In this document: positions 3 through 7,261 of the stretch, in pieces
Layout: every line of letters starts with the position of its first letter
How positions within the stretch are numbered: the stretch's first letter is position 1
Source: Streptomyces sp. WP-1
GTDB taxonomy: Bacteria; Actinomycetota; Actinomycetes; Streptomycetales; Streptomycetaceae
Direction of reading: 5' to 3'
Assembly (NCBI RefSeq): GCF_030450125.1
Contig: NZ_CP123923.1
Span: 5,456,001 to 5,520,000 of the forward strand
Length of the DNA stretch: 64,000 nucleotides
Made by a program: the position numbers and the translations under genes
The notes under the pieces: model-generated
What the model saw: the letters and a program-made list of their open reading frames with translations, nothing else
The model's database searches: none
Told to the model about the DNA's origin: nothing

Positions 3-1439
3 CTCCCCGACATGTCCCTCGCCCTGCACAGCACGTTCGCCTCGCTGCAATGGGTGATCGACGCCTACGCCCTGGCCCTCGCCGTGGTGCTGCTCGGCGT
101 GGGAGCGCTCGCCGACCTGACCGGGCACCGGCGCGTCTACCTGGGCGGCCTCGTGGCCTTCGCGCTCGCCTCCGCGGTGTGCGGCGCGGCGCCGAACCCG
201 GGCCTGCTGATCGCGGCCCGTGCCGTGCAGGGGCTCGGGGGCGCGGCGATGTTCGCGACCGCCTTCCCGCTCCTGAACGCCTCCTACCAGGGGCGCGACC
301 GGGGCACCGCGTACGGCGTGTGGGGCGCGGTCTCCGGCGCCGCCGCCGCGGTCGGCCCCGTCCTCGGCGGTCTGCTCACCGAGGCCGTCGACTGGCGGTG
401 GATCTTCTACGTCAACATCCCGATCAGTGTGGTGGCGGTCCTGCTGGCCGTGAAGGCCCTGTCCGCGGACCGGCCCACGTCCGGGCGCCGCCCCGACTGG
501 ACGGGAACCGTGCTGTTCACCGTGGCCGCCGCGGCCCTCGTCCTCGGGGTGATCCGCGCCCAGGAGCACGGCTGGACCTCCGGCGCGGTCCTGGGCCTGT
601 TCGCCCTCGCCGTCGTCGCCTTCGTCGTCTTCCTGGTCGTCCAGGCCCGCTCGCCGCACGCGATGCTCGACCTGTCCCTGTTCCGCAGCCGCTCGTTCAC
701 CGGGATCATGATCGCGTCGCTGACGGTGAACGTCGCGGCGTTCGCGATGCTCGCCTACACGTCGATCTGGCTGCAGTCCCTGCTCGGCCTGACGCCGCTG
801 GAGGCGGGCCTGACCGGACTGCCGCTGTCCGTGGCCTCGTTCTTCACCTCGCTGGTCGTCGGCCGCTTCCTGCACGGCGTCCGCCCGCAGCTGCTGATAG
901 GCGTGGGCATGGTGCTGATCGGCGCCGGCGCGCTGGCCGAGAGCCTGCTGATCGGCGCGGGCTCCGACTGGACGGCACTGATCGTCGGCTACGCGGTGAT
1001 CGGCGTCGGGGTCGGCGCCACGCTGCCCACGCTGGGCTCCTCGGCGACCGCGGCGGTGGGCTGGCAGCGGGCGGGCATGGCCGCGGGCGCGACCAACAGC
1101 GCGCGCCAGCTGGGCCACGCCATCGGCATCGCCGTCCTCGGCAGCGTCTTCGCGTCCTCGTCGGCCGCGTGGCTCACCGACCACCACGTCCGGGGCGGCG
1201 CCGCCCTCGGCCGGGCCCTCTCCGGGGGCGGCGCGGGCCACGTCCTGGCCGCGACCCCGCCCGCGGGGCGCGCCGAGCTGGCCGACGCCCTGCACGGCGC
1301 CGCGGCCCACGCCCTGCGGGCCGGCTTCACCGTCGCCGGGGTGGTGGGCCTGGCCGCCGGACTCCTGGCCCTGCTCCTGATGCGCCCCCAGCGGGTCGCC
1401 CCGGCGGTGGAACAACCCCCGGTCCCCGCCCACGCCTGA
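3..1439 (+). CDS. MFS drug exporter, DHA2 (EmrB/QacA) type, 5' end missing
   Basis: Probable proton-driven multidrug efflux protein of the plasma membrane. The reading frame is open from base 3 and reads LPDMSLALHSTFASLQW, which is the usual family sequence just after the first membrane helix. The first ATG (base 12) is therefore internal and the true start lies before the window. Visible family marks are the WVIDAYAL helix 2 motif, LADLTGHRR (loop 2-3 motif A), GAAMFATAFPLL, and the motif C-like AAAVGPVLGGLLTEAVDWRWIFYVNIP. About 12-13 helices are present in this fragment. A perfect palindromic terminator follows 43 bases after the stop, so the gene ends its transcription unit. The substrate cannot be told from sequence. 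Confidence 0.9.
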   Translation, partial: LPDMSLALHSTFASLQWVIDAYALALAVVLLGVGALADLTGHRRVYLGGLVAFALASAVCGAAPNPGLLIAARAVQGLGGAAMFATAFPLLNASYQGRDRGTAYGVWGAVSGAAAAVGPVLGGLLTEAVDWRWIFYVNIPISVVAVLLAVKALSADRPTSGRRPDWTGTVLFTVAAAALVLGVIRAQEHGWTSGAVLGLFALAVVAFVVFLVVQARSPHAMLDLSLFRSRSFTGIMIASLTVNVAAFAMLAYTSIWLQSLLGLTPLEAGLTGLPLSVASFFTSLVVGRFLHGVRPQLLIGVGMVLIGAGALAESLLIGAGSDWTALIVGYAVIGVGVGATLPTLGSSATAAVGWQRAGMAAGATNSARQLGHAIGIAVLGSVFASSSAAWLTDHHVRGGAALGRALSGGGAGHVLAATPPAGRAELADALHGAAAHALRAGFTVAGVVGLAAGLLALLLMRPQRVAPAVEQPPVPAHA

Positions 1440-1669: not shown

Positions 1670-2833
1670 TCAGGCGATCCGGTGCTCCCAGCGCAGGGAG
1701 GGGGCCTGGTCGATCCAGTACCGGTGGGACGCGGGCGTCACGCGGAGCCGTACGGAGTCGATCTCCGGAGCCCCGGCGTCCCGCCAGGCGACGAGGGAAC
1801 GTTCCACGTCGTCCCACAGGGCCATCGGGCCGCCTTGGCGGACGGCCCAGTTCTCGCCGTCGAGGAAGAACTCGGCGAACGACTCCCTCTCCGGATCGAA
1901 CAGGTACCGCAAGGGCGACCCGTCACCGTCCGTCGCGCGGACGAACTGAGCGCCCGGCGCCGCCAACTGCGCAAGGAAGGCGGGCATCCACTCCTCCAGG
2001 ACAAGAGGAGGCACCCGAGTGCGCCGCTCGCTGTCCGCGTACGCGGTCCGGGCGGAGAGATCGCCGGCCACGGGGGCCACTGCCTGGGCTCGCGCCTGCA
2101 TGAAGGAGGAGCGCCCGACGATCGAGCCCTCGGCGGTGCCGTCATCGCCGACGGCCAGTTTCGCGAGGCCGGTTCCCCACGGCCACGAGCCGACCGTGCC
2201 GAGGACGACGCCTCCGGGTCTCGTCTGCCTGATCCACGCGTACGGGATGCGGCGGACCGCGCAGGTGGCGATGACCCGGTCGTAGGGTGCCCGGTACGGG
2301 TGGCCGAGCAGCCCGTCGCCCGTCACCGTCCACGTCGAGAAGCCGGCGGCTTCGAGAGCGGCATCGGCGCGCGCGGCCACCTGTGCGTCGACCTCGACCG
2401 TGGCGACGTTGTCCTCGCCGAGGTAGTGGCACAGCAGGGCCGTGGAGTAGCCGGTGCCTGTGCCGATCTCCAGGACTCGGTGGCCCGTCGCGAGGTCCAG
2501 GTTCTCGATCATGCCGACGACGGTGGCCGGGTCGGTCGAGGAGGACGTGGGCACGCCTATGACGGGTCCGTCGGCCTGGTCGGCGGTGAGGTGGCCGTCG
2601 AGCTGGGTGGTGAGGGTGTCGACGCTGTACGCGGTCTTCACCCACTCGTCCGGGTCCGTGTCGGCGGCGGTGACGGGCCGCCAGGTCCGCCCCTCGTCCA
2701 GGAAGACTCCGGGGCGGAGGAACCGCTCACGGGAGACGGCCTCGACGGCCGCACGCAGCCATGGGGATTTCAGGACACCTTCGTCCATGAGCACGGTCAC
2801 CATGCGACGCCGCTCGGATGCCGGGTCGGTCAT
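1670..2833 (-). CDS. tgmC: PIMT-like methyltransferase of an ATP-grasp peptide (graspetide) cluster
   Basis: SAM-dependent O-methyltransferase related to protein-L-isoaspartate methyltransferase. In known clusters of this layout (fuscimiditide ThfM) it methylates an Asp side chain of the cross-linked peptide, which then closes to an aspartimide. The 387-residue protein shows the PIMT-like GVPTSSSTDP segment (residues 93-102), SAM motif I LEIGTGTGYS (121-130), and a C-terminal extension of about 150 residues beyond the PIMT core. The start was chosen at 2833 because ATGA overlaps the stop of the ATP-grasp gene, implying translational coupling; longer in-frame starts would run deep into that gene. 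It is last in the three-gene operon. Family assignment (TIGR04188-type) is by memory of motifs and context. Confidence 0.88.
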   Translation of the reverse strand: MTDPASERRRMVTVLMDEGVLKSPWLRAAVEAVSRERFLRPGVFLDEGRTWRPVTAADTDPDEWVKTAYSVDTLTTQLDGHLTADQADGPVIGVPTSSSTDPATVVGMIENLDLATGHRVLEIGTGTGYSTALLCHYLGEDNVATVEVDAQVAARADAALEAAGFSTWTVTGDGLLGHPYRAPYDRVIATCAVRRIPYAWIRQTRPGGVVLGTVGSWPWGTGLAKLAVGDDGTAEGSIVGRSSFMQARAQAVAPVAGDLSARTAYADSERRTRVPPLVLEEWMPAFLAQLAAPGAQFVRATDGDGSPLRYLFDPERESFAEFFLDGENWAVRQGGPMALWDDVERSLVAWRDAGAPEIDSVRLRVTPASHRYWIDQAPSLRWEHRIA

Positions 2834-3795
2834 CGGCGGTCTCCTTGTACGAGTAGGTCGGCGAAGGCGCTGGACATCGGAAGGCCGGTCTCGGTCTCCA
2901 GCCACCCCCACTGTCCGTTGGGATTCAGCTCCAGCCACCAGTAGTCCCCCGCGCGGTCGACCGCGAGGTCGAAGCTTCCCGATACCAGATCCAGTCGGTC
3001 CAGGTAGGCGTGCAGCGCCTTGGCCACACGGTCGGGAAGGTGCTCCACGGTGTAGGTCAGCGCGCTGTAGTCCTTGCGCCAGTCCAAGAGGTCGGAGTCG
3101 ATGCGTACGGCGAACGTATGCCGGCCTACGAGCAGCACGCGGACATCGGCGACCTTGTCTACACGGGCTTGGAACAAATGGGGGGCGAACCGGACGCTGT
3201 CGTCGATCTCGTCGGCGGTGACTGGGTCCGCCCAGCCAGTCACCGGCACGCGGTCACGCGTGTAGGGGGTCCATCGCAGTGTCTTGAAGATCGACTGCTC
3301 CTGAGCGCGGACGAACTCGCGCGCTTCGTCCGGGTCGTTGGTGACAAGGGTGGGCGGGATGGTGAAGCCGAGTTGCTGGGCGAGAACGAGCTGCGCGGGT
3401 TTGTAGTCGGCTGCGGCGACGCGCAGGGGGTGGTTGACCCAGAGCGGGCCGCTCAGGGCGTAGAGGGTGCCACCGAGTCCGTAGCGGACCTGCGCTGCCG
3501 CGAACCGGGAGTCGTCAGGGGACAGGTGGGGAAACGTGGGCCATTCCGGGCGGCGCCAGTACACCGAGCGGACTTGGGTCACATCAGCGGTTCTCGACGG
3601 GGTGCGCACCTGCCCAACCACCGGTGTCGGGCAGGTGCCGAACCGAGCCGAGACCGTGAGGTCCTCGCCGATGTCGGCGAGGTTGAACCGGACCACCGGC
3701 ACATCGCGCCGGTTGAGTTCGGTGATCACCATGTCGGCGGTGATGTCGTCCGCCTCGGTGGCCACCAGAACCGGCTTCTCCTCGGTCATGGCCAT
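2830..3795 (-). CDS. tgmB: ATP-grasp graspetide maturase (ester/amide-forming ligase)
   Basis: ATP-grasp ligase of about 321 residues that activates Asp/Glu side chains of the precursor peptide as acyl phosphates and joins them to Thr/Ser hydroxyls (omega-ester links) or Lys amines. The N-terminal pre-ATP-grasp half starts PVLVATEADDITADMVITEL. The C-terminal metal/ATP site LELNPNGQW (about 288-296) is the hallmark shared with microviridin-type ligases. The start ATG at 3795 overlaps the precursor stop as TGATG; a second ATG lies two codons in (3789). The gene sits between precursor and methyltransferase with one- and four-base overlaps, so the three proteins are made together. Confidence 0.9.
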   Translation of the reverse strand: MAMTEEKPVLVATEADDITADMVITELNRRDVPVVRFNLADIGEDLTVSARFGTCPTPVVGQVRTPSRTADVTQVRSVYWRRPEWPTFPHLSPDDSRFAAAQVRYGLGGTLYALSGPLWVNHPLRVAAADYKPAQLVLAQQLGFTIPPTLVTNDPDEAREFVRAQEQSIFKTLRWTPYTRDRVPVTGWADPVTADEIDDSVRFAPHLFQARVDKVADVRVLLVGRHTFAVRIDSDLLDWRKDYSALTYTVEHLPDRVAKALHAYLDRLDLVSGSFDLAVDRAGDYWWLELNPNGQWGWLETETGLPMSSAFADLLVQGDRR

Positions 3796-4055
3796 CAGTC
3801 CTGATTGCTGTCCTGGTCGTGCCCTTGGTCGTTCTTCGAGTCCGAGTTCGTCGTCGTGGAGGTCTCGGTACCGGAGCTGGTGCCGTGCTTGCCCATCTCG
3901 ACCACCTGCCCGACGCGGTCGCGGAACACCCCGAGCTGCGTTGAGGGGTCGATGGCGACCGTGGCGTGGGGTCGGCGGATGACCGTCGGGTAGGGCGCGA
4001 GTCGGCCCGCACCCCACGGCCTCGTGGGGGAGGGAAGTGCGACAGAGGTGGTCAT
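3795..4055 (-). CDS. tgmA: Graspetide precursor peptide (ATP-grasp-modified RiPP)
   Basis: An 86-residue precursor. The leader carries the conserved RPWGAGRLAPYP (12-23) and IDPSTQLGVFRD segments, probably the recognition element for the ligase. The C-terminal core starts near KHGTSSGTETSTTT (56-69): a run of Thr/Ser donors followed by a tail with Asp at 72, 76, 80, 82 and 86, which can act as acceptors or as the aspartimide site. No export signal or protease site is obvious. The start at 4055 has AAGGAG seven bases upstream. An alternative in-frame ATG at 4130 lacks such a site. The 290-bp gap to the divergent regulator at 4346 should hold the promoter; I see no clear -10/-35 pair there. Confidence 0.88.
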   Translation of the reverse strand: MTTSVALPSPTRPWGAGRLAPYPTVIRRPHATVAIDPSTQLGVFRDRVGQVVEMGKHGTSSGTETSTTTNSDSKNDQGHDQDSNQD

Positions 4056-4345: not shown

Positions 4346-5602
4346 ATGACGTCGCGGCGTAAGCACTTGGCGGAACGGCGCGCGGCCCGAGGTTACTCGC
4401 AGGAGGAATTCGCAGAAGCGCTCTTGGTGGCCGCGTCCACCGTGGTCCGTTGGGAAAGCGGTCGTGCCACCCCGCGTCCCCATCAACGGCCCAAGATCGC
4501 AGAGTTGTTGGGAGTGGCCCTCCCCGAGCTGGAAGCCCTTTTCTCCGACGAACAGCCGGCCGAGACAGCCGGGCTCTCCGCCGCTCCCCCCCTCCTCCAT
4601 GGTGATGATGACGACATGAAGCGCCGCGAAGTCCTGGGTCTGCTCGCCGTCACGGGTGCGCTGGTCGCTCTTCCCGATTCCGGTGAGACCTCCCGAGGGC
4701 GGGCGGCGTCGACACTCTTGGAGACGGGGGACGCCCTGCATCGCAGCCTCTGGCAGGTCTACGCGCTGTCGGACTCCAAGCAGGTTGTGTTCCCCGCGGT
4801 GCGCGCACAACTCGATGTGATGGCGAAGGGACTGACCGAGACCCGTACCGCTGTGGATCGGTCCCGACTGTGTCGGATGACGGCCGACCTCTACCAGCTC
4901 GTCGGTGAGCTGTTCTTCGACACCAACCGTTACACCGACGCCGCGCAGTGCTACACGCTGGCCGCCAACGCGGCCTACGCCGGTGGCGACCACGATTTGT
5001 GGGCCTGTGCCATGACCCGCCACGCGTACGTCGAGCTGTACGCGCGCCGCGCGCACGCTGCCCAACCCCTGCTCGCGGCGGCGCTCCGCGTTGCTCGGAG
5101 GGGCGACGGCACTCTTTCCACCCGGCACTGGATCGCGGCCGTCCAGGCACAGGTGTACGCGGCCGTGGGCGATCTCGACGCGTGCAGAAGGGCTCTGGAT
5201 GAAGCGGGGAAGGTGCAAGGTCTCGACGGCGCTCACTCCCACAACGGGGGCTGGCTCCGCTTCGACGGCTCCCGCCTGGCCGAGGAGAGAGGGGCCTGCT
5301 ACCTCCAGCTGGGCCGCCCTGATCTCGCCGAGGAAGCGCTCACCGCGGCCCTTGCCCAGCCTCTGTCCCTGCGTCGCCGCGCCGCTGTTCTGAGCGACCT
5401 CGCCGTGCTCGGGGCGCACAGGCGGGACGTCGACCAGGTCGTGCACTACGCGGAGCAAGCACTCGGACTGGCCGACCGGTCGAATTCGGGATTCATCGGC
5501 AAGAAGCTGGACGGGCTTCGGGGGCGTCTTGCCCCGCTCATGTCCGATGACCGAGTCTCGACTCTTGATCACCGAATCGCGGCGCTTCCGCGCACCGCAT
5601 GA
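4346..5602 (+). CDS. XRE-family regulator with C-terminal TPR-like region
   Basis: DNA-binding protein of 418 residues. An N-terminal helix-turn-helix (about 8-60, GYSQEEFAEALLVAASTVVRWESG) is followed by an acidic linker and the stretch KRREVLGLLAVTGALVALPD (about 92-111), which resembles a Tat signal but is internal and common in this Streptomyces family. The rest (about 120-400) is alpha-helical with repeated YxxAAxxY/ALxxA patterns, consistent with TPR ligand-sensing repeats. It diverges from the graspetide operon and is the natural candidate to control it; that link is inference. The stop is 16 bases before the next gene, so the two are probably co-transcribed. Confidence 0.8.
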   Translation: MTSRRKHLAERRAARGYSQEEFAEALLVAASTVVRWESGRATPRPHQRPKIAELLGVALPELEALFSDEQPAETAGLSAAPPLLHGDDDDMKRREVLGLLAVTGALVALPDSGETSRGRAASTLLETGDALHRSLWQVYALSDSKQVVFPAVRAQLDVMAKGLTETRTAVDRSRLCRMTADLYQLVGELFFDTNRYTDAAQCYTLAANAAYAGGDHDLWACAMTRHAYVELYARRAHAAQPLLAAALRVARRGDGTLSTRHWIAAVQAQVYAAVGDLDACRRALDEAGKVQGLDGAHSHNGGWLRFDGSRLAEERGACYLQLGRPDLAEEALTAALAQPLSLRRRAAVLSDLAVLGAHRRDVDQVVHYAEQALGLADRSNSGFIGKKLDGLRGRLAPLMSDDRVSTLDHRIAALPRTA

Positions 5603-5618
5603 CGAGAGGGACACGTGC

Positions 5619-5972
5619 ATGAATGACGGCCGGATCTTCCGCGAGGCGTGGATCGACGGTGTGAACAAGCACTATCCCGGCGATCCGAAGCCCGGCTATG
5701 TCACGCCGTGGGACGAGACGCCCGCGTGGGAGCGCGAAGCCGCCACCGCCGTGTACGGGCAGGTGCGCGACTTCATCAAGGTCAGTGGCGGGCATGCGGC
5801 CCGGCTCTCCCGCGAGCAGAAGGGCCGGTTCGTCGCGATCTGCTGGACCGCTCAGATGTTCAGGCACTTCGAAGACCCGAAGCCTGGGTATGTTGCCGAC
5901 TGGTCCGACCTGCCGGTCTGGCAGCGGGAGACGGACGCGGACATCTTCGAACGCATCGAGGGGACCGTCTGA
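5619..5972 (+). CDS. Small protein with an internal duplication, next to the RiPP cluster
   Basis: A 117-residue soluble protein of unknown function. It contains the same motif twice: DPKPGYVTPWDETPAWERE (about 21-39) and DPKPGYVADWSDLPVWQRE (about 86-104), each followed by a helix (AAT.VYGQVRDFI / TDADIFERIEG). The middle has ARLSREQKGRFVAICW. The ATG at 5619 was chosen for GAGAGGG nine bases upstream; the longer frame from 5529 only reads through the end of the regulator gene. It follows the XRE gene by 16 bases and is probably expressed with it. The repeated PGYV..W...P.WxRE unit looks like a small binding module. Partner unknown. Confidence 0.75.
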   Translation: MNDGRIFREAWIDGVNKHYPGDPKPGYVTPWDETPAWEREAATAVYGQVRDFIKVSGGHAARLSREQKGRFVAICWTAQMFRHFEDPKPGYVADWSDLPVWQRETDADIFERIEGTV

Positions 5973-6087: not shown

Positions 6088-6321
6088 CTAACTCCGCGCC
6101 CCGGCGTAGGCGACGAACGCCGACCAGGTGGTGGGGGTGAGGGCGAGTTGGGGGCCCTGTTTGGCTTTGGAGTCGCGGATGTGGATGGTGGCGGGGGTGG
6201 TGGCGACTTCGATGCAGTTGTCGCCGGACGCGCTGCTGTAGCTGGACTTGCGCCAGTTCAGGGCGACTTCGACGCAGTCGCCGTCGCCGCTGCTGCTGTA
6301 ACTGCTCTTGAACCAGTTCAT
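6088..6321 (-). CDS. DUF397 protein with tandem SSYS motifs
   Basis: A 77-residue protein of the DUF397 family, very abundant in Streptomyces and nearly always paired with an XRE/DUF5753 regulator (related to the BldB/AbaA-type partners). Two copies of the family start motif are visible, WFKSSYSSSGDGDCVEVA and WRKSSYSSASGDNCIEVA, so the N-terminal half is duplicated; the common C-terminal HIRDSK...LALTPTTWSAFV follows. Its ATG at 6321 overlaps the stop of the regulator (ATGA), so translation is coupled. Probably modulates the regulator; exact role unknown. Confidence 0.88.
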   Translation of the reverse strand: MNWFKSSYSSSGDGDCVEVALNWRKSSYSSASGDNCIEVATTPATIHIRDSKAKQGPQLALTPTTWSAFVAYAGARS

Positions 6322-7145
6322 GGGTTCCCTCGCATCCGCTGCAACAGGCTCCGTGAGTATTCCGGGGAGAGAGCCTGCGAACGCATCCTGGCATACCGTT
6401 GGTGAAGGATGCTGATCTCCTTGGCGTCCGATACGAGGATCCCGCCACGCTGCCCTTCGCAGTAGGCGAACCACTTGTGCTTCGGGGTCTCCAGCAACTG
6501 CATGGGACCGGCGAGACCGGCGTGCGATGCGCGGGCAGTCGGCATGATCTGGATCTCGACGTTCCGTAGCTCGCTGACCTCCAGGATGTGGTCGATGACT
6601 TCCCGGGTGACGTCCGGCCCGCCCGTGCCCCGATGGAAGACATGCTCCTCCAGGATGAAGTTGAACGCCGTGTTCGGGCGCTCCCACAGCAACTGCTGGC
6701 GCTTGGCGCGGGCGAGCCACTGCTCTTCGATCTGGCTGTCGCTCAGCGGCGGAAGCTGCTCGGTGAACAACACCCGCGCATACCGCTCCGTCTGCAAGAG
6801 CCCCGGCACCATCCTGGACTCGTACGTGTAGAGCGTGATGGCCACTTGCTCCAGCATCGCCCAGCGGCGGAACCAGGAAGCCAGTCCAGGCTCGCGCTCA
6901 AGATGCTCGGCGGCTCGTCGGAAGGCGCCCGTGTTGCCGAGCGCCGCCTCCGCCGCCTCGATGAAGTCGGGGTCGGGCATACGCCTGCCCAACTCGATCG
7001 AGGCGATCGTGTGCTTGGAGTACCCCACGAGTTCCCCAAGTTCCTCTCGGGTGAGCCCGTGATACTCGCGGAGCGCTTGAAGCACCGCTCCGAACGTGCG
7101 CAGACTTACCGACGACTCCGGCTCACCGCCGCTTCCCGTAGCCAT
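6318..7145 (-). CDS. XRE-family regulator with DUF5753 domain
   Basis: About 275 residues. An N-terminal helix-turn-helix (LRTFGAVLQALREYHGLTREELGELVGYSKHTIASIE) is followed by the long DUF5753 region with its usual YESRMVPGLLQTERYARVL and ARAKRQQLLWE segments and RNVEIQIMP. It is the partner of the downstream DUF397 protein and is divergent from a HATPase gene, a neighbourhood seen over and over in Streptomyces. The ATG at 7145 is given as start; a GTG at 7160 in the same frame adds five residues and cannot be excluded, and neither has a good ribosome site. Confidence 0.88.
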   Translation of the reverse strand: MATGSGGEPESSVSLRTFGAVLQALREYHGLTREELGELVGYSKHTIASIELGRRMPDPDFIEAAEAALGNTGAFRRAAEHLEREPGLASWFRRWAMLEQVAITLYTYESRMVPGLLQTERYARVLFTEQLPPLSDSQIEEQWLARAKRQQLLWERPNTAFNFILEEHVFHRGTGGPDVTREVIDHILEVSELRNVEIQIMPTARASHAGLAGPMQLLETPKHKWFAYCEGQRGGILVSDAKEISILHQRYARMRSQALSPEYSRSLLQRMRGNP

Positions 7146-7261
7146 GCGACCGATGGTCACGCCCCGTCATGAGTACTGTCCAGTCCGTGACCGCGTACGC
7201 CCCCGCAGCGTACACGCGTCACCCCTGGTGAACCCCCCTCCCCGCGCCCCACATTGGGCGC

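What the first reader, a model, noticed from the sequence alone, without database searches (positions are those of the whole stretch)
1670..4055. Compact graspetide cluster predicted to make an aspartimide-containing RiPP
Seen: an 86-residue peptide with a conserved leader and a Thr/Ser-rich then Asp-rich core, an ATP-grasp ligase with ELNPNGQW, and a PIMT-like methyltransferase with a C-terminal extension. The three overlap at TGATG and ATGA. Known: this trio is the layout of fuscimiditide-type biosynthesis, where the ligase makes ester cross-links and the methyltransferase turns Asp into aspartimide. Inferred: core near residues 56-86 with donors in TSSGTETSTTT and acceptors among D72, D76, D80, D82, D86. 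No protease or exporter is in the operon. The compound from this strain is, as far as I know, undescribed.
Basis: partly seen in the sequence, partly recalled or inferred. Interest (0 to 1): 0.85.

Follow-up and report, generated by a model that had tools for sequence, protein, structure and literature searches.

The report
Streptomyces graspimiditide (group 13 graspetide) cluster
Three overlapping genes in a Streptomyces chromosome encode a small peptide and two enzymes predicted to tie it into an ester-linked hairpin and convert one loop aspartate to an aspartimide; it is a real but ordinary member of a known natural-product class, close to two relatives already made in the laboratory.

Summary
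An 86-residue precursor (TIGR04186), an ATP-grasp ligase (TIGR04187) and a PIMT-like methyltransferase (TIGR04188) score above curated cut-offs and overlap at TGATG and ATGA. This is a group 13 graspetide ("graspimiditide") cluster, a class with over 1,300 predicted clusters and four expressed members (PMC13001092). The S. albidoflavus orthologue, very probably the albusimiditide precursor, has nearly the same core, and published SsfA residue numbers fit the same core type. This corrects one detail: D72 is the predicted loop methylation site, not an ester acceptor; acceptors should be D76, D80, D82 and D86, perhaps with the C-terminal carboxylate. Five Thr (59, 63, 65, 67, 69) and five Asp are invariant, or Thr-to-Ser only, in 102 of 102 distinct 30-aa cores. 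The less ordinary point: D72 is followed by Ser with a six-residue loop, whereas all four expressed members have Gly there. No protease or exporter was found among the recurrent neighbour families scanned, though that scan was incomplete. The host genome has five graspetide loci. All chemistry is inferred. New member of a known kind; modest interest.

The parts
3795..4055 (-). precursor peptide, 86 aa; leader about residues 1-56 with RPWG at 12-15; predicted core about H57-D86 (boundary inferred)
   Evidence: TIGR04186 100.6 bits, PF14408 91.2 bits; 225 homologues at E<=1e-5, best 120 listed; RPWG
3849..3881 (-). codons of residues 59-69: invariant Thr 59, 63, 65, 67, 69, predicted ester donors
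   Evidence: 102 distinct 30-aa cores: T63, T67, T69 in 102 of 102; T59 and T65 Thr in 101, Ser in 1; pairing not determined
3837..3842 (-). codons of D72-S73, predicted loop methylation / aspartimide site with n+1 Ser
   Evidence: D72 and S73 in 102 of 102 distinct 30-aa cores; aligned with D81-G82 of SsfA by residue numbers
3798..3830 (-). codons of residues 76-86: D76, D80, D82, D86, predicted ester acceptors
   Evidence: 102 of 102; last 12 residues hold four Asp and no Glu, as stated for SsfA
2830..3795 (-). ATP-grasp peptide ester ligase (graspetide synthetase)
   Evidence: TIGR04187 421.6 bits; solved relatives 9bou E 2e-40, AMdnB 7m4s, 5ig8, CdnC 7mgv
1670..2833 (-). PIMT-like O-methyltransferase, motif VLEIGTGTGY at residue 120, C-terminal domain with WRDAGAP (WXXXGXP) at 350-356
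4346..5602 (+). divergent NsdA-family HTH/TPR regulator, possible regulator of the cluster
   Evidence: NF053720 153.6 bits against 75; beside the cluster in 19 of 65 loci, window included
5619..5972 (+). 117-aa protein of no Pfam family, directly downstream of the NsdA-family gene; same neighbourhood in the nearest relatives
   Evidence: 19 of 65 loci, the same 19 as the NsdA-family gene; no Pfam hit

Best explanation
A group 13 graspetide (graspimiditide) operon. The ATP-grasp enzyme, probably recruited by the RPWG leader segment, phosphorylates Asp side chains of the C-terminal half of the core (D76, D80, D82, D86, possibly also the C-terminal carboxylate) and joins them as esters to Thr from the set 59, 63, 65, 67, 69, giving a nested stem-loop with 4-5 losses of 18 Da. 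The methyltransferase then methylates D72 in the loop of the folded peptide. The methyl ester closes on the amide of S73 to an aspartimide, which may hydrolyse to isoAsp. Shown here: gene identity, order, conservation and the predicted fold of the methyltransferase. Inferred: all chemistry, pairing, leader removal and export.
For: Three curated HMMs above cut-off. In 102 distinct 30-aa cores five Thr and five Asp positions stay constant (two Thr-to-Ser changes), while the other hydroxyl positions (60, 61, 66, 68, 71, 83) vary to non-hydroxyl residues. Codons at these positions vary synonymously, e.g. T65 uses four Thr codons in 57 sequences. The published SsfA facts (fragments starting at 63 and 66, T78, D81-G82, four Asp and no Glu in the last 12 of 97 residues) fit a 32-aa core of this family, placing D81 on window D72. 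The genome of S. albidoflavus NRRL B-1271 has one TIGR04186 match and one above-cut-off TIGR04188 match (its completeness is not told), the species of albusimiditide. WXXXGXP in 71 of 75 full-length methyltransferase rows, a set that holds some genes twice or three times and three to four of the host's other loci. The model matches 1dl5 including its C-terminal domain.
Against: No mass data. All four expressed graspimiditides have Gly after the methylated Asp; this one has Ser (PMC13001092). If T69-D76 is the inner cross-link the loop is 6 aa, shorter than the 10-12 aa given for graspimiditides, so either the inner Thr is an earlier one or the loop is unusually short. The sequence of SsfA itself was not seen; the mapping rests on residue numbers in passages of the paper, and three residues named there (Gly77, Asn83, Ser89) differ from the P0085 core used.
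Confidence: 0.88

Rival explanations
1. A variant of the best explanation: no lasting aspartimide. The Asp-Ser loop ends as isoAsp (or a mix of Asp and isoAsp), the aspartimide being a short-lived intermediate, as for SsfA(BM).
For: SsfA(BM) was obtained as an isoAsp/Asp mixture; the n+1 residue affects aspartimide hydrolysis in lihuanodin.
Against: Three of four expressed graspimiditides were purified with the aspartimide. Nothing here measures lifetime.
Confidence: 0.45
2. Decayed or silent locus: the cluster is not functional in this strain, since relatives often lose it.
For: Related loci show loss: in L119 (G076) the NsdA-family gene matches only from codon 275 and the methyltransferase only from codon 272, and the precursor and ATP-grasp gene give no match; by tblastn at E<=1e-10 and at least 40% of length, 5 of 65 loci lack an ATP-grasp match and 4 of 65 a methyltransferase match, some on short contigs.
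Against: All three window genes are open and match their models nearly end to end; mean pN/pS 0.32 for the core and 0.40 for the leader over 1,431 pairs of 54 sequences, i.e. constraint.
Confidence: 0.07
3. The methyltransferase is a housekeeping isoaspartate repair enzyme that happens to lie next to a graspetide pair.
For: It has the PIMT fold and PF01135.
Against: It scores 488 bits for TIGR04188, overlaps the ligase gene, has the extra C-terminal domain with WXXXGXP, and is found with the precursor in 61 of 65 loci.
Confidence: 0.02

Closest known systems
albusimiditide (S. albidoflavus J1074); likely orthologue L113 from S. albidoflavus NRRL B-1271
   Same: Same three-gene order; core HGTSTGTETNTTTSSDGQNNDQGHDQDSDKD aligns with the window core, with all five Thr and the Asp ladder kept; ATP-grasp 71% and methyltransferase 65% identical.
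   Different: n+1 residue Gly instead of Ser, position 70 Ser instead of Asn, loop one residue longer. That L113 corresponds to albusimiditide is inferred from the species and from L113 being the only TIGR04186 match in that genome; the albusimiditide paper was not held.
SsfA(BM) from Streptomyces sp. F-3
   Same: Residue numbers in passages of PMC10787088 fit the same core type; methylated Asp aligns with D72, four Asp in the last 12 residues.
   Different: Gly at n+1; total length implies a core two residues longer; five esters reported, the fifth thought to use the C-terminal carboxylate. Not known for the window peptide.
fuscimiditide (T. fusca ThfA/B/M) and amycolimiditide
   Same: Same enzyme trio and stem-loop logic; RPxG leader tetrapeptide (RPFG there, RPWG here).
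   Different: Two cross-links in fuscimiditide and four in amycolimiditide; loops of 10-12 aa.

Membership tests
Group 13 graspetides (graspimiditides) | precursor of the TIGR04186 / PF14408 family | tested here: met
   100.6 bits (cut-off 25) and 91.2 bits (cut-off 25)
Group 13 graspetides (graspimiditides) | ATP-grasp graspetide synthetase in the same operon | tested here: met
   TIGR04187 421.6 bits, cut-off 350; overlap TGATG
Group 13 graspetides (graspimiditides) | PIMT homologue with extra C-terminal domain and WXXXGXP | tested here: met
   TIGR04188 488.1 bits; WRDAGAP at 350-356; fold match to 1dl5 over 310 of 317 residues
Group 13 graspetides (graspimiditides) | conserved leader tetrapeptide of the RPFG kind | tested here: met
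   RPWG at residues 12-15; P13 and W14 invariant in 32 aligned precursors, G15 in at least 90%
Group 13 graspetides (graspimiditides) | Thr block, loop Asp, Asp block (stem-loop core) | tested here: met
   sequence pattern conserved in 102 of 102 distinct 30-aa cores; structure itself not tested
[quoted passage not shown]
   needs expression and MS/MS
Group 13 graspetides (graspimiditides) | aspartimide or isoAsp at one Asp | not testable with these tools
   needs expression, hydrazine trapping, NMR
Group 13 graspetides (graspimiditides) | loop of 10-12 aa (as in the two NMR structures) | tested here: inconclusive
   6 aa if T69-D76 is the inner link, 10 aa if T65-D76; pairing unknown
Asp-Gly subtype of the four expressed graspimiditides | Gly after the methylated Asp | tested here: not met
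   Ser73 here; Ser in 102 of 102 distinct 30-aa cores. Gly is not class-defining: PMC13001092 lists Ser among predicted n+1 residues

The most novel reading that the evidence does not exclude
The Asp-Ser, six-residue-loop cores form a separate chemical subtype: with Ser at n+1 in a tight ring the loop ends in a different state (for example mainly isoAsp, a persisting methyl ester, or hydrolysis back to Asp) from the Asp-Gly relatives. Within one ATP-grasp clade N70, S73 and the short loop go together, against S70, Gly/Asn73 and a 7-9 residue loop.
Probability: 0.3. Interest if true: 0.5.

Novelty: new member of a known kind. Interest (0 to 1): 0.3.

Why it matters
The class is known, but its biological role and its leader proteases are not (PMC13001092 section 12, and passages of PMC12291112). 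This core is nearly invariant across many streptomycetes and some Kitasatospora and Actinacidiphila, so it is a good candidate for asking what these peptides do. It is also an untested Asp-Ser case next to studied Asp-Gly ones: one pair of peptides would show what the n+1 residue does to the aspartimide.

Tried and rejected
Exporter: the MFS gene at 12-1439 (+) was considered and rejected as part of the cluster; it is beside the trio in 2 of 65 loci, the window included.

A first filter was too strict (about half of the known trio genes lost). A looser one gave 31 groups in at least 6 loci, many of them antisense or shadow frames; representatives of 20 of the 31 were scanned with Pfam. They gave MerR, GNAT, HD, XRE-DUF5753, YaaA, aldolase, HATPase, RNase II, SnoaL-like, DUF6087 and short-chain dehydrogenase families, 9 of 20 without a hit, and no protease or exporter. 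The filter also lost the NsdA-family gene, known from 19 loci, so a missed protease or exporter is not excluded, nor is one encoded elsewhere in the genome.

Solved structure for the precursor: two weak matches only (mt-SAF38, best E 0.015).

Number of origins of the Asp-Gly subtype: a first test rejected one clade at p 0.004, but L010, whose core is of the Asp-Gly type, had not been labelled so. Repeated with L010 labelled: 3 changes on the tree; one clade of all seven long-loop rows p 0.03, of the six Asp-Gly rows alone p 0.07. So a single origin of Asp-Gly is not rejected, and I do not claim repeated switching. Swapping of precursor genes between clusters is not excluded either.

Loop coupling: of 116 distinct cores from 150 proteins, one (P0088, with an unrelated end) was not parsed; 87 parsed as N70/Asp-Ser/6 (one of them, P0111, is a DS-repeat expansion that the pattern mis-reads), 1 as N70/Asp-Ser/8, 26 as S70/Asp-Gly/7-9 and 1 as S70/Asp-Asn/8. 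The 150 are the listed best hits of two searches, not a random sample. The rule fails outside this clade: the host's locus L003 (TSLDGTPDQ) is Asp-Gly with a six-residue loop. An earlier parse was faulty and not used.

Literature not reached: the albusimiditide, amycolimiditide and fuscimiditide papers and a 2023 graspetide review are not held. Of PMC13001092 I read the outline, parts 1-2 of 5 of the text, sections 11 and 12 and passages. Of PMC10787088, PMC12291112, PMC13003496, PMC13097080, PMC8939145, PMC12262139 and PMC9576775 I saw passages only. That this exact peptide is undescribed rests on the paper searches only.

Full report
What is there. On the minus strand of window 1670-4055 lie a precursor gene (3795-4055, 86 aa), an ATP-grasp gene (stop at 2830, ATG at 3795) and a methyltransferase gene (1670-2833, 387 aa). 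Hmmscan gives TIGR04186 at 100.6 bits (cut-off 25), TIGR04187 at 421.6 (cut-off 350) and TIGR04188 at 488.1 (cut-off 380); Pfam adds PF14408 and PF01135. The start and stop codons overlap as TGATG and ATGA.

Related clusters. The precursor has 225 homologues at E<=1e-5 in the protein collection, of which 120 were listed; among those with a name the closest are from Streptomyces murinus and Streptomyces sp. 2RAF24, each 95% identical. A scan of species genomes gave 64 loci with organism names: 61 Streptomyces, two Actinacidiphila and one Kitasatospora. Among 392 genomes sampled from the host's genus, 97 have a match at E<=1e-10, and by my hand count of that table 43 of 392 have one at 60% identity or more, so the subtype is widespread but patchy. 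With the family model, 107 of 150 genus genomes have some TIGR04186 match at E<=0.001.

The core. From 214 sequences (120 proteins plus 94 copies read from loci, many of them duplicates) I took 121 distinct cores; 102 are 30 aa long like the window's and 19 are of other lengths. In the 102, Thr at 63, 67 and 69 and Asp at 72, 76, 80, 82 and 86 never change; Thr59 and Thr65 change once each, to Ser. H57, G58, N70, S73 and Q81 also never change. The other hydroxyl positions (60, 61, 66, 68, 71, 83) all vary to residues without a hydroxyl. In 57 sequences the constant positions show synonymous codon changes. The 19 cores of other lengths are less constant; for example L010 has Val at the place of Thr63 and extra residues at the end. 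Mean pN/pS over 1,431 pairs of 54 sequences is 0.40 for the leader (13-56) and 0.32 for the core (57-86), 0.23 for residues 76-86 and 0.49 for the loop 70-75; no correction for multiple hits was made, so these ratios are a rough guide.

Which Asp is methylated. In SsfA, GluC and trypsin fragments begin at residues 63 and 66, five ring-forming carboxylates lie in the last 12 residues of 97, which have four Asp and no Glu, and SsfM turns Asp81, followed by Gly82, into isoAsp (PMC10787088, passages). Numbering a 32-aa family core (P0085) from 66 to 97 puts Asp at 81, Gly at 82, Thr at 78 and four Asp with no Glu in the last 12; residues named as Gly77, Asn83 and Ser89 differ in that particular homologue. 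So window D72 is the counterpart of Asp81 and should be the methylation site, and D76, D80, D82 and D86 the acceptors. Five constant Thr would match the five esters reported for SsfA, but which Thr pairs with which Asp is not known.

Nearest expressed relatives. L113, from S. albidoflavus NRRL B-1271, has core HGTSTGTETNTTTSSDGQNNDQGHDQDSDKD. Its genome has one TIGR04186 match and one TIGR04188 match above cut-off. Albusimiditide comes from S. albidoflavus J1074 (PMC13001092), so L113 is very probably its orthologue; the albusimiditide paper itself was not held. In an ATP-grasp tree of 75 rows L113 falls inside the 61-row clade that holds the window gene (100/99).

Asp-Ser against Asp-Gly. All four expressed graspimiditides have Gly after the methylated Asp, while Ser is on the list of predicted alternatives. 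In 150 proteins with 116 distinct cores, Asp-Ser goes with N70 and a six-residue loop and Asp-Gly or Asp-Asn with S70 and a loop of 7-9 (exceptions and parsing faults are told under Tried and rejected). Outside this clade the link fails (L003), and the tree does not reject a single origin of Asp-Gly (p 0.07). I therefore report it as a correlation within one family, useful for choosing experiments.

ATP-grasp enzyme. The nearest solved relatives by sequence are 9bou (E 2e-40), AMdnB 7m4s, 5ig8 and CdnC 7mgv; the window enzyme has ELNPNGQWGWLE where AMdnB has EINPTGEWGMLE.

Surroundings. In 64 related loci plus the window, tblastn (E<=1e-10, at least 40% of length) finds the precursor in 63, the ATP-grasp gene in 60 and the methyltransferase in 61 of 65; some loci end early. 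The divergent NsdA-family regulator and a 117-aa protein occur together in 19 of 65; the MFS gene in 2 of 65 and the DUF397 gene in 3 of 65. Clustering of neighbour ORFs gave 31 groups present in at least 6 of 65 loci; the 20 representatives scanned with Pfam include no protease or exporter, but the clustering missed at least one known neighbour. This fits, without proving, the published statement that native proteases are not known for graspimiditides. In one genome without a TIGR04186 match (G076, L119) only the end of the NsdA-family gene and the end of the methyltransferase gene remain, side by side, so the cluster can be lost.

The host genome holds five TIGR04186 loci, each with a TIGR04187 gene. 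Three have a TIGR04188 gene above cut-off, a fourth has a weaker match (250 bits) and the fifth, at 733 kb, has none listed. Their cores differ strongly.

Verdict. A correct and well-supported annotation of a known class, close to two members already expressed. What is new is limited to the reassignment of D72, the exact constant ladder, and the untested Asp-Ser loop.

Noticed in passing
L045:1328-1438 (+), own genome near C1:7495176: A 37-aa Lys/Pro/Gly-rich peptide with an Asp-Gly ends about where a PIMT-like methyltransferase (239 bits to TIGR04188) begins; it looks like a type I pamtide / imiditide pair.
   Followed up: partly
L037, own genome C1:733151-734284: A fifth graspetide locus with a 63-aa precursor (core end GTTTSTAGSKTHFDD) and an ATP-grasp gene but no PIMT listed nearby; many of the weaker matches in genus genomes are of this short length.
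   Followed up: partly
L119 (G076:C68): Remnant of the cluster: an NsdA-family gene matching only from codon 275 lies next to a methyltransferase piece matching from codon 272; no precursor or ATP-grasp match.
   Followed up: partly
window 5619-5972 (+): 117-aa protein with two DPKPGYV...W...E-type repeats, no Pfam family; homologues in 40 of 150 genus genomes. In at least five (G000, G015, G030, G075, G092) it lies within about 3 kb of a TIGR04186 match, in others such as G007, G085 and G147 it lies elsewhere; not counted throughout.
   Followed up: partly
window 6088-7160 (-): DUF397 gene and HTH-DUF5753 gene pair; such pairs are reported near group 11 and 13 graspetides (PMC13097080 passage), but the DUF397 gene is found in only 3 of 65 loci here.
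   Followed up: partly
L110:11404-11694 (+) and similar loci: A DUF6087 protein encoded directly downstream of the methyltransferase gene; the ORF group occurs in 14 of 65 loci but has no room in the window's 230-base gap before the MFS gene.
   Followed up: no
L085:7913-8434 (+) and similar loci: A HATPase_c_2 (PF13581) protein near the cluster in a group of 14 of 65 loci; PF13581 is also in a published list of families associated with ATP-grasp graspetide loci (PMC8939145 passage).
   Followed up: no
L084 and L111: Precursors with a changed end (L084) or a DS-repeat expansion (L111); no ATP-grasp or methyltransferase match was found for L084, and only a 79-residue ATP-grasp match for L111.
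   Followed up: partly
L052, L053, L058, L059, L109: ATP-grasp matches that are short or missing in these loci although the precursor reads through; decay or sequencing error not told apart.
   Followed up: no
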